Shown piece after piece: positions 37,779 through 48,770 of a DNA stretch of 64,000 nt; within the stretch, counting starts at the first letter, position 1; each line of letters starts with the position of its first letter. Position numbers and translations under genes: made by a program. A model generated the notes under the pieces. That model saw nothing but the letters and a program-made list of their open reading frames with translations, made no database searches and was not told where the DNA came from. Location of the stretch: positions 1,286,712 to 1,350,711 of the forward strand of contig NZ_NIDE01000017.1 of assembly GCF_002197845.1 (NCBI RefSeq), written 5' to 3'. This DNA is from Fimbriiglobus ruber. Its GTDB lineage: Bacteria; Planctomycetota; Planctomycetia; Gemmatales; Gemmataceae.

Positions 37779-38591
37779 ATGTACCGCGCTCTGCTCATGA
37801 GTCTCGTTGTCGCGTTGCCACTTCTCGCGGTTGACCCGCCCAAGAAGGCCGATCCCAAGGACTCGCCGCGCGTCCTTTACCCGATCCCGCTCGCGGCGGC
37901 CCCGGGGCAGAAGACCAAGATCATACTTCGCGGGTTCAAACTCGACACCGTGACTGAGGTCAAGGCGGGCGACGACAAGGTAAAGGTCAAACTCGTCGGC
38001 AAGCCGAAGCCGGCTGGTGGGCCGACGAACTTCCCCGCGGAACGGATCGGCGACAGCGAGTGTGAAATCGAACTCGACGTGCCGAAGGACTTCCCGGCCG
38101 GGCACCTCGAATTGACCGCGGTCAGCTCGGGCGGATCGTCTCCGTACGGGTTCGTGACCGACGCCTTAACCGCGGCTAGCCGGGGCAGGTCGTCCGCACC
38201 GTACAAGTTCGTGATCGACGCCGGCCCGCGCACGGTCGAGAAGGAGCCGAACGACTCGTTCGCGAAGGCCCAGGAAATCACCGTCCCCACGACCGTGGAT
38301 GCCGCGATCGGGCAAGTGCGGGACGTGGACGTGTTCCGGTTCGTGGGCAAAGCCGGCGATAAGGTTCGGTTTGAAGTGCAAGCGAGCCGGCTGGGTTCTC
38401 CGGTCGACGCCCTCATCACGCTGTACGACGCCGACCGCCGGATCATCGACGCCTGCGACGACGTGGACGGCGACCCGGACCCAATCCTGACCGTCACCCT
38501 CCCGAAAAACGGCGTGTACTACCTGAGCGTGATCGAGGCCCACGATTTCGGCGGCGGTCAATTCCCTTATCGATTGCACGTCACCAAGTAG
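37779..38591 (+). CDS. Secreted protein with PPC (pre-peptidase C-terminal) domain
   Basis: A 270-aa exported protein. The signal peptide MYRALLMSLVVALPLLAVDP has no lipobox. A first beta domain (PGQKTKIILRGFKL, ELDVPKDFPAGHLELTAV) is followed by a PPC-type domain at about 155-268, with EKEPNDSFAKAQEI, DVDVFRFVGKAGDKVRFEVQA and the C-terminal YYLSVIEAHDFGG. The EPNDS...DVD.F.F pattern is diagnostic. PPC domains are export or stability modules of secreted enzymes. Here no enzyme domain is attached. It overlaps the convergent Rieske gene by 11 bases. Confidence 0.85.
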   Translation: MYRALLMSLVVALPLLAVDPPKKADPKDSPRVLYPIPLAAAPGQKTKIILRGFKLDTVTEVKAGDDKVKVKLVGKPKPAGGPTNFPAERIGDSECEIELDVPKDFPAGHLELTAVSSGGSSPYGFVTDALTAASRGRSSAPYKFVIDAGPRTVEKEPNDSFAKAQEITVPTTVDAAIGQVRDVDVFRFVGKAGDKVRFEVQASRLGSPVDALITLYDADRRIIDACDDVDGDPDPILTVTLPKNGVYYLSVIEAHDFGGGQFPYRLHVTK

Positions 38592-39690
38592 TCCGCTCTT
38601 CGCGCAACGCCCGCGCGAGCATCTGGTGGAAGTGATACCCGCCGTTCTCGCGTTTGACGCTGAACCGGCCGGTAGTGTAGGCCCGGCTCGCGAGCCCACG
38701 CTGCACGTCTTCGCAAATGGCCATGTCTTCCTTCTGCACCTGATCCGCGACCGCGATGCTGTTCTGGATGAAATCGGCTGGCGTACTCGGGGCGAAATAG
38801 TAATCGAACACGACGCGGCAGCGGTCGGGCGCGAGCGGCACGACGAGGTTCGTGTCCATCACTCCCGCGTACAAGTTAACCATCAGGTTCGGGTACACCC
38901 ACCAGTACGCGGCGCGATCACCCGTGCGGGTCTGCCCCTCTGCCCCGGTGGCCGGCGTAATCGGAGCGGTTTGCAGGCTGGTCCGGGCGTAGGTAGTCGT
39001 CGTGTACTCCTGATAATTCAGCACGTTCGCCAGGCCGGGGTGGACGGTGTTTACGTGGTAGCCGCCGTCCAGGTAGTTGTCGACGTAGGTCTTCCAGTTG
39101 CATGCGACCTCGTACTCGACCCGCGTGGCGAACGGCAGATTGCCGAATGATCCGTTCGAGGCCGCCCACTCGGGTAACGATGCGAGAAACGCTTCCAACG
39201 GCTCCCGCGGCGGATCGAGGTGGACCCACACGTATGGCCCCCATTCGGCCACAGCCCCGACCGGGATGAGTCCATTGTCTTCCTTGCGGAAGTCGCAAAC
39301 GCCGTCGAACTCCGGCGTCCCGCGGAGCCGACCCGTCAGGTCGTAGGTCCACCCGTGGTATCGGCAGCGGAGTTTGCTCACAGTCCCACACGGGGCGGTT
39401 ACGAGGGACGTGGCCCGGTGCCGGCAGACGTTGAAGAAGCCGCGGAGAACGCCATCGTCCCCGCGCACGACCAACACCGGTTCGCCGGCGACCTCCGCCG
39501 TGACATACGCCCCCGGCTCTCGCAGCTGATCCGCCCGACCCGCGACCTGCCACGACCGCGAGAAGACCGTTTCCCGTTCCGCGGCGAACATGCGCGGGTC
39601 GGTGTACCACGACGCCGGGATCGTGCTGGCGCGGTCCAGCGGAAGCGTGGGGTCGAAGGCGGTCAACAAATCGCGGATGTCGGCTGGCAT
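38581..39690 (-). CDS. Rieske-type ring-hydroxylating/choline-monooxygenase-like oxygenase
   Basis: A 369-aa terminal oxygenase alpha subunit. The Rieske cluster is CRH (Cys89, His91) and CRYH (Cys109, His112). The mononuclear iron site is in NYLDGGYHVNTVHPG (His212, His217) with a late acidic ligand near Glu321/Asp322 (KEDMAIC). The layout is closest to the choline/carnitine/glycine-betaine monooxygenase branch, which attacks quaternary ammonium compounds, but aromatic substrates remain possible. Its ATG overlaps the TAA of the ceramidase-like gene (TAATG, 39688-39692). A reductase partner is not visible. Confidence 0.9.
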   Translation of the reverse strand: MPADIRDLLTAFDPTLPLDRASTIPASWYTDPRMFAAERETVFSRSWQVAGRADQLREPGAYVTAEVAGEPVLVVRGDDGVLRGFFNVCRHRATSLVTAPCGTVSKLRCRYHGWTYDLTGRLRGTPEFDGVCDFRKEDNGLIPVGAVAEWGPYVWVHLDPPREPLEAFLASLPEWAASNGSFGNLPFATRVEYEVACNWKTYVDNYLDGGYHVNTVHPGLANVLNYQEYTTTTYARTSLQTAPITPATGAEGQTRTGDRAAYWWVYPNLMVNLYAGVMDTNLVVPLAPDRCRVVFDYYFAPSTPADFIQNSIAVADQVQKEDMAICEDVQRGLASRAYTTGRFSVKRENGGYHFHQMLARALREERTTW

Positions 39691-40481
39691 TACGGCTTTC
39701 CCGGTGGGGGAATGGACGGATTGAGCGGCATTCCTTCGATCCGGTAAAAGTATTCGGTCAGGGCGTAGGTCGTGATCGCGCCGAACGTGTGCCAGAGCCA
39801 GTGAGTGCCCATTGGCAACGTGTCGAATTCGGTGCCGTCGATGAGCCGGCAGAACCACGCGATCGCGAAACTCGCCAGCGCCCCGGCGACCCAGCTGCCG
39901 TACCGGAAACGGGTCCGAACGAGGACCGCACTCAAGGGCACGAGGATCAGGATCGCCTGGGATGCGTAGGACAAGTTGACCCGCCAGTTCGGGTTCGGGA
40001 ACGGAATCGCCCGGAAGACCACCCCATTCATCAGCACGAGTGCCCCCAGCAGTCCGACCGTCACCAGGGCGACCGGCCGCCACCCGCTCGCCCGGACGAG
40101 TCGCAGGGCGAGGTAGACGGCGGCGGCCAACCCCAGTAGCAGTATCGGGATCAGGTCCAGCAGGAAGTACACGGTGCGGGTCCGGAGGGCGTGGTACAGC
40201 GTACCGCCGATGCCGCCCGCGAGGAGGATCGGCAGGCAACAGGTGATGAACGGGTATTGCCGGTACCGCCCGCGAATCCGCCACGCCCAAAAAGCGACGA
40301 TCAGGATGAAGAAGCTGGCCGTCACGGCGTTATACGGCTCGGCGACCGACACCGTCTGCGGGTCGGCCGGTGTTTCCTTGTAGCGCGGCCCCCGATCCGG
40401 GAGACGTTCTTCCCGGGGGGCCAACGTCTGCGGCGGAGGGGCGGTCGTCGGTTCGCCGGGAGGGGTCGATTCTTCTGGCAT
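39690..40481 (-). CDS. Ceramidase-like CREST-family membrane hydrolase
   Basis: A 263-aa integral membrane protein with seven hydrophobic segments and a Pro-rich cytoplasmic N-terminus. It shows the alkaline ceramidase/CREST pattern: AEPYNAVTAS (Glu48, Asn51), GGTLYHALRTR (His97), LLDLIPI (Asp109) and THWLWHTFG (His227, His231). In known members the three His and the Asp bind the catalytic zinc, so amide hydrolysis of a lipid is predicted. The family Ser before His97 is not clearly present. I prefer the ATG at 40481; GTG at 40505 would add eight residues. Coupled to the downstream Rieske gene. Confidence 0.82.
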   Translation of the reverse strand: MPEESTPPGEPTTAPPPQTLAPREERLPDRGPRYKETPADPQTVSVAEPYNAVTASFFILIVAFWAWRIRGRYRQYPFITCCLPILLAGGIGGTLYHALRTRTVYFLLDLIPILLLGLAAAVYLALRLVRASGWRPVALVTVGLLGALVLMNGVVFRAIPFPNPNWRVNLSYASQAILILVPLSAVLVRTRFRYGSWVAGALASFAIAWFCRLIDGTEFDTLPMGTHWLWHTFGAITTYALTEYFYRIEGMPLNPSIPPPGKP

Positions 40482-40880: not shown

Positions 40881-41204
40881 ATGACCGCTCGACGCCTGTT
40901 TGCCCTCGCGGCCCCCTTGGTGGCCGACGACCGCCTTCCGTGGGACGAGCAACTCCCCCCGGAACCCGTCCTGGCCGCCGCCGAGGACGAAGACCTCGAA
41001 GAAGACGACGACGACGATGACGACGACGACGATGACGACGACCTCGAAGACGATTTCGAGGACGACGACTTGGACGACGACCTTGAGGACGATGAACTCG
41101 ACGACCTCGACGACGACCTCGACGACGACGAATTCGACGACCTCGACGACGACGAGGATGATGACGACGAAGAGGAAGAGGAAGAAGCCGAGGACGAAGC
41201 CTAA
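40881..41204 (+). CDS. Hyperacidic low-complexity protein
   Basis: A 107-aa protein. Residues 1-34 are ordinary (MTARRLFALAAPLVADDRLP...); from about 35 on it is almost only Asp and Glu with regular Leu or Phe (LEDDFEDDDLDDDLEDDELDD), including a run of 13 Asp. It has no signal peptide or domain. Other frames of the same DNA are Thr- or Ser-rich, so the Asp frame is the one with a GAGG site and an ATG. It could be a charge mimic, metal or histone-like protein decoy; no function is known. A perfect 58-bp palindrome follows. Confidence 0.6.
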   Translation: MTARRLFALAAPLVADDRLPWDEQLPPEPVLAAAEDEDLEEDDDDDDDDDDDDDLEDDFEDDDLDDDLEDDELDDLDDDLDDDEFDDLDDDEDDDDEEEEEEAEDEA

Positions 41205-47267: not shown

Positions 47268-48224
47268 CTACTGGCTCGCCACCAACTCCCCGACCGGCTC
47301 GTCTTCCTCGACTTCGACCGGTTTGTCGCCGTGTTTCGCCCGGGCTCGCCACACGGCGTCCGCTACGAAGATCGCCACGGCCGCCCACACGCAGCCCATC
47401 GCGATCATGCGGTCGGGCTGGATCTCCTCGCCGATCACGAAGACGGCCACGAGGAGTTGCATCGTCGGCGAGACGAACTGAATGAAGCTGTTCGCCAGTA
47501 GCGGCATCCGGCGGATCGAGACCGTGAACGCGAGGAGCGGCACGAGCGTCACCACGCCCGAGAACATGAGCAAGCTGTTCAGCCGCCAGTCTGGGCCGAA
47601 CGCCCCGCCGCCGTGTGTTTCGTTCCCGAGCAGGTAAGCCGCGGACGGCACGAACATCAGCAAGGTTTCGACCGCCAGCCCGGTGAAACTGTCTACCTGC
47701 ACCTGCTTGCGGACGAGGCCGTAGAGCCCGAACGAGACCGTCAGTGCGACGGCGAGCCACGCGACCGAGCCGGCCGCGATGAAGGGAACGGCCACGCCGA
47801 GGGCGACCAGCGCGAGCGCCGGGTAATGGGCCGGACGGAGCTTTTCGCCGAGGAACACGGTCGCGAGGAAGGCGTTGACCAGGGGCATCATGTAATACCC
47901 GAGGCTGGCCTCGGCGACCCGCGAGGTCACGGTAGCGTAGATGTATAGCAGCCAGTTGGTGGCCAGGAACGCGGCACTGAGCAAGAGCGCCAGCACGAGG
48001 CGGCGCGAGCGAAGGACGCGGATCAGTTCCGACCAGCCGCCCAGAAGGGTGGTCAACACGACGAGCAGGCCGATGGTCCAGACGATGCGGTGCGCGAGGA
48101 TTTCGCCGGCGGAAACCTGTTTCACTTCCCGGAAATAAAGCGGGACCAGCCCCCACCAGACGTAGGCGACCAGTCCGAACAGGATCCCGCTTCTTAACGA
48201 ACCCTCTGTAGGCTGCGCCACCAC
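47268..48224 (-). CDS. rarD: EamA-family transporter RarD
   Basis: A 318-aa inner-membrane protein with ten predicted helices. The N-terminal ILFGLVAYVWWGLVPLYF and SAGEILAHRIVWTI, with LLYIYATVTSRVAEASLGYYM, are RarD hallmarks. RarD is a putative drug/metabolite exporter (chloramphenicol-sensitive protein in Pseudomonas). It starts at GTG at 48224 (two successive GTG codons). The C-terminal tail is acidic (VEVEEDEPVGE). Confidence 0.92.
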   Translation of the reverse strand: MVAQPTEGSLRSGILFGLVAYVWWGLVPLYFREVKQVSAGEILAHRIVWTIGLLVVLTTLLGGWSELIRVLRSRRLVLALLLSAAFLATNWLLYIYATVTSRVAEASLGYYMMPLVNAFLATVFLGEKLRPAHYPALALVALGVAVPFIAAGSVAWLAVALTVSFGLYGLVRKQVQVDSFTGLAVETLLMFVPSAAYLLGNETHGGGAFGPDWRLNSLLMFSGVVTLVPLLAFTVSIRRMPLLANSFIQFVSPTMQLLVAVFVIGEEIQPDRMIAMGCVWAAVAIFVADAVWRARAKHGDKPVEVEEDEPVGELVASQ

Positions 48225-48770
48225 AATACTCCGGCTAGATGATCGAAACCCGGCGGCCCTGACTCTAACGAGTACCGCCTGCCGGGATCGCGCTTACGAG
48301 TGCGCGGGGTATACCGAACCGCACGCACAGGAGCGACACCAGTCAGCCCACGCGGTTCGCGCGAGTTTCACACCGCGGTTTTTTTATTCCCAGGCGAACA
48401 GTGAGACCGTTCGTCGTCCCCGATCGGATCTTTCCGGCGAACGGGGCACCGACTGCCGCCCGACTCGATGGACTCAATCCCGGACGGCCGTTCTCTTGTC
48501 GCGTTCAGCGAAAATGTTCGGGGACGCCAAATCCCATTCGCTCCCGTCCCGAAAAAAAGCTGTACATCGAACCAGCAACAGGCGAATTGCAACTCCTTGC
48601 CACCCAACAGAAAGCATTTGCAGCTACCAACGTACAGCGGTTCGTCTCCGTAACCAGTTCGTAACAGCCGCACGAAGTTTTGCGGCAGGTTTAGAAACTT
48701 TTGTAGCCTATTCTCGTTATTATGCTGTGTTGTTTGGTGGCGTTTCGGTGGTGTTAGGGAGGTTCGTGCC
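48225..48770. other. Gene-free spacer upstream of the LRR gene
   Basis: No supported gene. Open frames on both strands are low-quality and partly overlap the leucine-rich-repeat gene. The last 100 bases are AT-richer (CTCGTTATTATGCTG near 48712) and hold the ribosome-binding site GGAGG of the LRR gene at about 48758, so its promoter is likely here. The first part should contain the rarD promoter. Confidence 0.45.

What the first reader, a model, noticed from the sequence alone, without database searches (positions are those of the whole stretch)
38581..40481. Translationally coupled ceramidase-like hydrolase and Rieske oxygenase
A CREST/alkaline-ceramidase-type membrane protein (Glu48, His97, Asp109, His227, His231) overlaps by TAATG the start of a Rieske oxygenase with an intact iron site. 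I know of no described pathway joining these two. A lipid amidase releasing an amine that a monooxygenase of the choline/carnitine branch then oxidises would be a new lipid catabolism or remodelling route.
Basis: partly seen in the sequence, partly recalled or inferred. Interest (0 to 1): 0.65.

Follow-up and report, generated by a model that had tools for sequence, protein, structure and literature searches.

The report
Bacterial ceramidase-like protein beside Rieske oxygenase
Two enzyme genes really do overlap in this planctomycete genome, a zinc-site membrane hydrolase of the ceramidase fold and an oxygenase of the choline/carnitine type, but relatives show that they are usually apart or separated by sugar-acid genes, so a joint lipid pathway is possible but not indicated.

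Summary
Confirmed: a 263-aa membrane protein, CER (40481-39690, minus), overlaps by one base (TAATG) a 369-aa Rieske oxygenase, RIE (39690-38581). CER is a CREST/alkaline-ceramidase-fold protein: its AlphaFold2 model matches human ACER3 best (Z 17.9), and E48, H97, D109, H227, H231 are invariant in 48 aligned sequences. One deviation: the CREST serine is Gly in 44 of 48. RIE keeps all iron and cluster ligands and the tyrosine marking quaternary-ammonium oxygenases.

The joint pathway is weakly supported. Of 95 family genomes, 33 have both genes, 6 only CER, 25 only RIE (by genus p 0.50). Direct adjacency is in 1 of the 33; in 10 others they lie 1-3.5 kb apart with uronate-catabolism genes between, a pair which here sits on another contig. 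RIE was found in 0 of 25 CER-bearing Bacteroidota genomes tested. No serine palmitoyltransferase passes cut-off in this genome, so own-made ceramide is an unlikely substrate.

Boldest reading left: turnover of trimethylornithine lipid, a major lipid of the probable host, Fimbriiglobus ruber.

The parts
39690..40481 (-). CER: seven-helix CREST/alkaline-ceramidase-fold membrane protein, 263 aa; E48, H97, R100, D109, H227, H231 invariant in 48 aligned sequences; CREST serine position is Gly93
38581..39690 (-). RIE: Rieske non-heme iron oxygenase alpha subunit, 369 aa; [2Fe-2S] ligands C89 H91 C109 H112; iron ligands H212 H217 D322; Y206 aligns with CntA Y203; D208 in place of the bridging Glu205 of CntA
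39688..39692 (-). TAATG: stop of CER and start of RIE share one base
47271..48293 (-). RarD-type EamA transporter (stop-to-stop frame), homologue of the gene that follows RIE in several other Gemmataceae; here about 7 kb from the pair

Best explanation
The two genes encode two real but functionally separate enzymes that share a transcript because of local genome history. CER is a membrane-embedded, zinc-dependent CREST hydrolase: three histidines hold zinc, Asp109 activates water, and it most likely cuts an amide or ester bond of a membrane lipid other than ceramide. RIE is a soluble Rieske monooxygenase of the quaternary-ammonium (choline/carnitine) type, fed by a reductase encoded elsewhere. 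In ancestral Gemmataceae they stood in a looser cluster CER - UxaE-like - D-mannonate oxidoreductase - RIE - RarD; in this genome the middle pair sits elsewhere, leaving CER and RIE abutting with a one-base overlap. Shown: fold prediction, conserved sites, gene orders. Inferred: zinc binding and hydrolase activity, substrates, the electron donor, transcription as one unit, and the direction of the rearrangement.
For: CER model pLDDT 89.5, seven long helices. ACER3 is the best structural match (VIA-align Z 17.9 over 215 residues; AdipoR1 and SIDT2 14.2; best listed row outside known CREST proteins 11.9) and the only PDB sequence found by the family profile at E <= 10 (E 0.0017). RIE's closest PDB sequence is carnitine monooxygenase (3.8e-46) and Tyr206 aligns with its Y203. 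Between CER and RIE lie a UxaE-like gene plus oxidoreductase in 9 genomes and the oxidoreductase alone in 1; one such oxidoreductase passes the D-mannonate oxidoreductase model (342 > 281 bits) and one UxaE-like protein matches solved UxaE (6.5e-27). The window's genome keeps that pair at C1:20451-22527. Each gene occurs without the other. CER's downstream neighbour varies: UxaE-like, CysK, PheS or RIE. No serine palmitoyltransferase passes its cut-off in the own genome.
Against: Physical linkage within 5 kb in 11 of the 33 genomes with both genes, in three genera, looks far above chance for multi-megabase genomes (not computed), so shared function or regulation is not excluded. Per genome, co-occurrence in the family is significant (p 1e-4) before phylogeny is allowed for. 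The one-base overlap itself suggests co-expression. The trees leave the window's two genes unresolved within the family, so the direction of the rearrangement is not proven; in the CER tree G092 falls among the g6 rows rather than with its own genus g37, a hint of exchange between lineages.
Confidence: 0.62

Rival explanations
1. A two-step lipid route: CER cuts an amide in a membrane lipid and RIE oxidises the amine set free.
For: Overlapping genes; cluster linkage in 11 genomes; CER has an amidase-type metal site and RIE a quaternary-ammonium marker residue. The probable host, Fimbriiglobus ruber, has trimethylornithine lipids, N-acylated quaternary-ammonium aminolipids, as major membrane lipids (PMC7828035, passages).
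Against: 25 of 58 RIE genomes in the family lack CER and 6 of 39 CER genomes lack RIE; 0 of 25 CER-bearing Bacteroidota genomes tested have RIE at E <= 1e-30; Limnoglobus roseus, also reported to have trimethylornithine lipid, carries CER (L003, the same contig as G051) but no RIE match at E <= 1e-60; uronate-type genes intervene in relatives. The primary amine from ceramide would not be a quaternary-ammonium substrate (established chemistry).
Confidence: 0.1
2. The whole cluster CER - UxaE-like - mannonate oxidoreductase - RIE - RarD serves one sugar-acid pathway in which RIE, for instance, removes an O-methyl group and CER frees the sugar acid from a lipid.
For: UxaE-like, oxidoreductase, RIE and RarD stand together without CER in G018 and, with a weaker RarD match, in G071; UxaE-like, oxidoreductase and RIE in G087. 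CER and UxaE-like co-occur strongly (27 both, 12 CER only, 4 UxaE only, 52 neither; by genus p 0.037).
Against: 29 of 58 RIE genomes have no UxaE-like match; no identified partner recurs beside RIE outside Gemmataceae (limits in Tried and rejected); RIE carries the quaternary-ammonium marker tyrosine; the oxidoreductase and epimerase already make an ordinary uronate route by themselves (established pathway).
Confidence: 0.12
3. RIE is a plain choline- or betaine-type osmolyte or nitrogen-source enzyme and CER a plain membrane lipid hydrolase or sensor; the overlap has no regulatory meaning.
For: RIE scores best against glycine betaine monooxygenase GbcA in NCBIfam (153.9 bits); RIE has no identified recurring partner elsewhere in the phylum; CER stands next to translation or unrelated genes in Bacteroidota.
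Against: GbcA cut-off (670 bits) is far from met; does not explain the repeated linkage in three genera.
Confidence: 0.16

Closest known systems
Alkaline ceramidase 3 (ACER3, PDB 6G7O), CREST superfamily
   Same: Seven-helix fold, three His plus Asp of the zinc site, Glu48 in the place of the Glu of the EFWN motif
   Different: Identity about 14-16% over the structural alignments; CREST serine is Gly in 44 of 48 members; the own genome shows no ceramide-synthesis enzyme over cut-off
Bacterial CREST hypothetical groups 1 and 2 (PMC3146951, passages)
   Same: Bacterial CREST proteins near alkaline ceramidases, function untested
   Different: Their bacterial members are mainly Proteobacteria; this family was found mainly in Bacteroidota and Gemmataceae; whether it falls in one of the two groups was not tested
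Carnitine monooxygenase CntA/YeaW (PDB 6Y9C) and group V Rieske oxygenases
   Same: Domain order, all iron and cluster ligands, marker tyrosine of group Va (PMC7948474 abstract and passages)
   Different: 32% identity to YeaW; Asp208 and one extra residue in the bridging loop; no CntB-type reductase among the neighbouring frames examined
Bacterial choline-monooxygenase-like proteins (PMC6157903, passages)
   Same: Two-domain Rieske oxygenase of the choline/carnitine type; the DNYLDGGYH motif resembles plant choline monooxygenase (recalled, not from a call)
   Different: Not characterised; assignment to the cd08883 subfamily could not be tested here
UxaE tagaturonate/fructuronate epimerase and D-mannonate oxidoreductase
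   Same: Families of the two genes found between CER and RIE in other Gemmataceae
   Different: In this genome they are on another contig; the UxaE-like protein matches no NCBIfam model at E <= 0.001

Membership tests
CREST superfamily (for CER) | Seven-transmembrane CREST fold | tested here: met
   AlphaFold2 pLDDT 89.5; ACER3 Z 17.9, AdipoR and SID-1-family rows 12-14, listed rows outside CREST at most 11.9; Foldseek's own E for ACER3 is only 1.6e-3
CREST superfamily (for CER) | Three histidines and one aspartate of the metal site | tested here: met
   H97, D109, H227, H231 invariant in 48 of 48
CREST superfamily (for CER) | Serine of SxxxH | tested here: not met
   Gly93 in CER; 44 of 48 Gly, 3 Ser, 1 Asp. 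TMEM8c also lacks it and is counted in the superfamily (PMC3146951 passage); CER is therefore filed as a variant
Alkaline ceramidase (for CER) | Pfam PF05875 gathering score | tested here: not met
   15 bits against 32.5; the relative L027 reaches 32.8
Alkaline ceramidase (for CER) | Hydrolysis of ceramide | not testable with these tools
   Indirect only: no serine palmitoyltransferase over cut-off in the own genome; 1 of 39 CER genomes tested passes NF047600, a model whose name points to Bacteroidetes, so weak for Gemmataceae
Rieske non-heme iron oxygenase alpha subunit (for RIE) | CxH...CxxH cluster ligands and two-His-one-carboxylate iron site | tested here: met
   C89 H91 C109 H112; H212 H217 D322
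Group Va quaternary-ammonium Rieske oxygenases (for RIE) | Aromatic residue at CntA position 203 | tested here: met
   Tyr206 by alignment with CntA and YeaW; criterion from PMC7948474 passages. The alignment has a one-residue gap next to it
Group Va quaternary-ammonium Rieske oxygenases (for RIE) | Activity on choline, carnitine or benzalkonium | not testable with these tools
   No assay; the fold model is too poor to inspect the pocket
Glycine betaine monooxygenase GbcA (for RIE) | NCBIfam NF058607 cut-off | tested here: not met
   153.9 bits against 670

The most novel reading that the evidence does not exclude
CER and RIE recycle trimethylornithine lipid: CER cuts the N-acyl amide of the lipid (or of its lyso form), and RIE oxidises the freed N-delta-trimethylornithine, a 2-amino homologue of gamma-butyrobetaine (a ligand of CntA, PMC7948474 passage), releasing trimethylamine. 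This would be a breakdown route for a planctomycete membrane lipid; one literature search (10 of 273 listed) and the passages seen of two papers on such lipids showed no described one.
Probability: 0.06. Interest if true: 0.75.

Novelty: new variant of a known kind. Interest (0 to 1): 0.33.

Why it matters
Bacterial CREST proteins related to alkaline ceramidases have no assigned substrate in the passages read, and the authors of PMC3146951 state that gene neighbourhoods gave them no substantial clue. This family adds a Bacteroidota/Gemmataceae branch whose members keep the zinc site but mostly have glycine for the CREST serine, a residue whose change to alanine costs ACER3 about 600-fold activity (PMC9436119, abstract and passages). 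It is a natural test of what that serine does. If the trimethylornithine-lipid reading were right, it would give a breakdown enzyme for a characteristic planctomycete lipid.

Tried and rejected
Rejected: CER as a classical ceramidase of endogenous ceramide (no serine palmitoyltransferase over cut-off in the own genome; all 39 genomes have weaker matches to that model, at E <= 1e-60, which were not sorted further). Rejected: RIE as GbcA. Looked for and not found: a recurring RIE partner outside Gemmataceae (39 RIE loci, frames within 4.5 kb, components in 3 or more loci, the first 25 shown). Two loose components do reach outside the family, one in 9 loci (2 of them outside) and one in 5 (3 of them outside), at 0.7-4.3 kb and in mixed orientation; they were not identified. 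Frames overlapping RIE by more than 30 bases were left out there.

Uninformative: GH3 (PF03321, the OlsH-type domain) is in 92 of 95 family genomes and does not discriminate. The RIE AlphaFold2 model from 6 sequences (pLDDT 46) was not used. Plasmid searches gave only distant Rieske proteins (381 records, all under 60% identity) and two Persicobacter CER relatives. Some CER relatives also match DUF6962 (11 of 48, best 9.9e-6) and 7TMR-DISM_7TM (7 of 48, best 0.0019); these were not followed.

Literature: CREST/bacterial ceramidase (12 of 105 listed), planctomycete sphingolipids (12 of 23), ceramidase/Rieske/planctomycete (12 of 59), Bacteroidetes ceramidase (12 of 671; the top row, on Tenacibaculum maritimum, names a ceramidase and was not opened), choline-monooxygenase-like enzymes (6 of 6), ornithine-lipid amidases (10 of 273). 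In the rows listed nothing describes this gene pair, judged by title and start of abstract.

Limits of counts: alignment A1 holds CER and 47 of the 79 loci. In one search two CER entries (G003, G054) are short matches near contig ends and one RIE entry (G044) is split; they were counted as present. Thresholds were E <= 1e-5 for CER and E <= 1e-60 for RIE and UxaE-like. The trees used 30 of the 39 family CER genomes and 32 of the 58 RIE genomes, each with 2 outgroup rows.
Full report
What is there. On the minus strand, CER (40481-39690, 263 aa) ends in TAA whose last A starts the ATG of RIE (39690-38581, 369 aa). RIE's 3' end overlaps by 11 bases the convergent frame 37779-38591, which carries a PPC domain. 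Other neighbours scanned are a PSCyt2/PSD1 protein, a DUF1501 protein, a weak TPR match, an ABC ATPase, a HEAT-repeat protein and an ArsC-like protein; none is a Rieske-type reductase (7 frames).

CER is a CREST-fold protein. Its own Pfam Ceramidase score is sub-threshold (15 of 32.5 bits), but 46 of the 48 aligned sequences match that model at E <= 0.1, best 2.4e-9. A profile of the 48 found one PDB sequence at E <= 10, human ACER3 (E 0.0017), with the EPYN motif on EFWN, GGTLYH on GSWCFH and Asp109 on the Asp of LLDELP. The AlphaFold2 model (mean pLDDT 89.5, pTM 0.84) matches ACER3 best: Foldseek E 1.6e-3, with no match at or below 0.001; VIA-align Z 17.9, rmsd 4.2 over 215 residues, then AdipoR and SID-1-family rows at about 12-14, and listed rows outside known CREST proteins at 11.9 at most (Myomaker, a TMEM8c protein by recall, is itself CREST). 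E48, H97, R100, D109, H227 and H231 are invariant in 48 of 48. H97, H227, H231 and D109 correspond to ACER3 His81, His217, His221 and Asp92, whose alanine mutants had no detected activity (PMC9436119, passages).

One departure. CREST is described by three His, one Asp and one Ser (PMC3146951, passages). At the Ser position CER has Gly93; across the alignment 44 of 48 have Gly, 3 Ser, 1 Asp. In ACER3, S77A leaves about 0.17% activity; in Per1p the equivalent change did not affect activity. CER is therefore probably an active but modified CREST hydrolase; activity is not shown.

RIE. The closest solved sequences are carnitine monooxygenase CntA (3.8e-46), then ring-hydroxylating dioxygenases. 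RIE keeps C89/H91/C109/H112 and H212/H217/D322. Tyr206 aligns with CntA Tyr203, the residue that binds the quaternary ammonium and marks group Va (PMC7948474, abstract and passages). The bridging Glu205 of CntA is replaced by Asp208 in a loop one residue longer, invariant in 6 Gemmataceae rows. It is not GbcA by NCBIfam (153.9 of 670 bits).

Is the pair conserved? In 95 family genomes CER has matches in 39 and RIE in 58; 33 have both, 6 CER only, 25 RIE only, 31 neither (p 1e-4 by genome; by genus 11, 4, 14, 10, p 0.50). Of the 33, 11 have them within 5 kb on one contig, 4 are on one contig but 186-818 kb apart (G009, G010, G011, G053), and 18 are on different contigs, some from fragmented assemblies. 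Only the window's genome has nothing between them. The two other genomes of its genus (86-87% complete) match neither at those thresholds. In the other ten linked genomes a UxaE-like gene and an SDR lie between in nine, the SDR alone in one. One such SDR passes NCBIfam D-mannonate oxidoreductase (342 > 281 bits); one UxaE-like protein matches Pfam UxaE (6.4e-55) and solved UxaE structures, though no NCBIfam model. RIE is followed by a RarD-type transporter in several. In the window's genome the UxaE-SDR pair is on contig C1 and a RarD homologue is at window 47271-48293. In the five linked loci inspected, RIE's likely ATG lies 75-165 bases after the SDR stop, so the tight overlap was seen only in this genome.

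Wider distribution. In 393 phylum genomes (at least 90% complete asked for) CER is in 10, nine of them in this family, and RIE in 40, ten of them in this family. In 39 RIE loci no identified partner recurs beyond close relatives (limits under Tried and rejected). CER is common in Bacteroidota: 58 of the 79 loci by record title. There a PheS frame recurs in 38 loci and lies directly downstream on the same strand within 100 bases in 21 of 58 by a strict gap rule. RIE was found in 0 of 25 of these genomes tested, at E <= 1e-30; the tool warns that an empty answer alone shows nothing, and the positive control is that the same query matches 40 of 393 phylum genomes. In three Gemmataceae loci CysK follows CER instead (one of them named).

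Substrate. The own genome's two proteins found with E. coli Kbl at E <= 1e-30 score best as Kbl (612 > 493 bits) and BioF (326 of 426, on the matched stretch only). Serine palmitoyltransferase NF047600 is over cut-off in 1 of 39 CER genomes tested. Ceramide is therefore unlikely to be the native substrate, within the limits of those models. That lipid has both an N-acyl amide and a quaternary ammonium, which is why it is the boldest reading left. Limnoglobus roseus, with the same lipid reported, has CER (L003; G051 is the same contig by length and position) but no RIE match, against an obligate pairing.

Verdict. Real genes, correct fold and sites, but the one-pathway claim rests on an adjacency seen once. 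The most interesting part is the glycine-variant CREST family itself.

Noticed in passing
L019 (JAIXLE010000059.1): A contig titled Bacteroidales bacterium carries a CER 55-59% identical to the window's and has the same length (163820) as contig C42 of G035, which is placed in the window's own family; the title is probably a misassignment.
   Followed up: partly
L046, L049, L063 (Cytophagales relatives): These three CER relatives keep the canonical CREST serine (SxxxH), unlike the other 45 sequences aligned; they would be good controls for the serine's role.
   Followed up: no
window 40881-41204: A plus-strand frame upstream of CER whose latter two thirds are nearly all Asp and Glu; gene status unclear.
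   Followed up: no
L009:4228-5310 and equivalents: A YaeI-like metallophosphoesterase (175.9 of 188 bits) lies divergently upstream of CER in many Gemmataceae loci, also in loci without RIE; none was found beside CER in the window's genome (L179).
   Followed up: partly
window 38581-38591: The 3' end of RIE overlaps by 11 bases the convergent PPC-domain gene 37779-38591.
   Followed up: no
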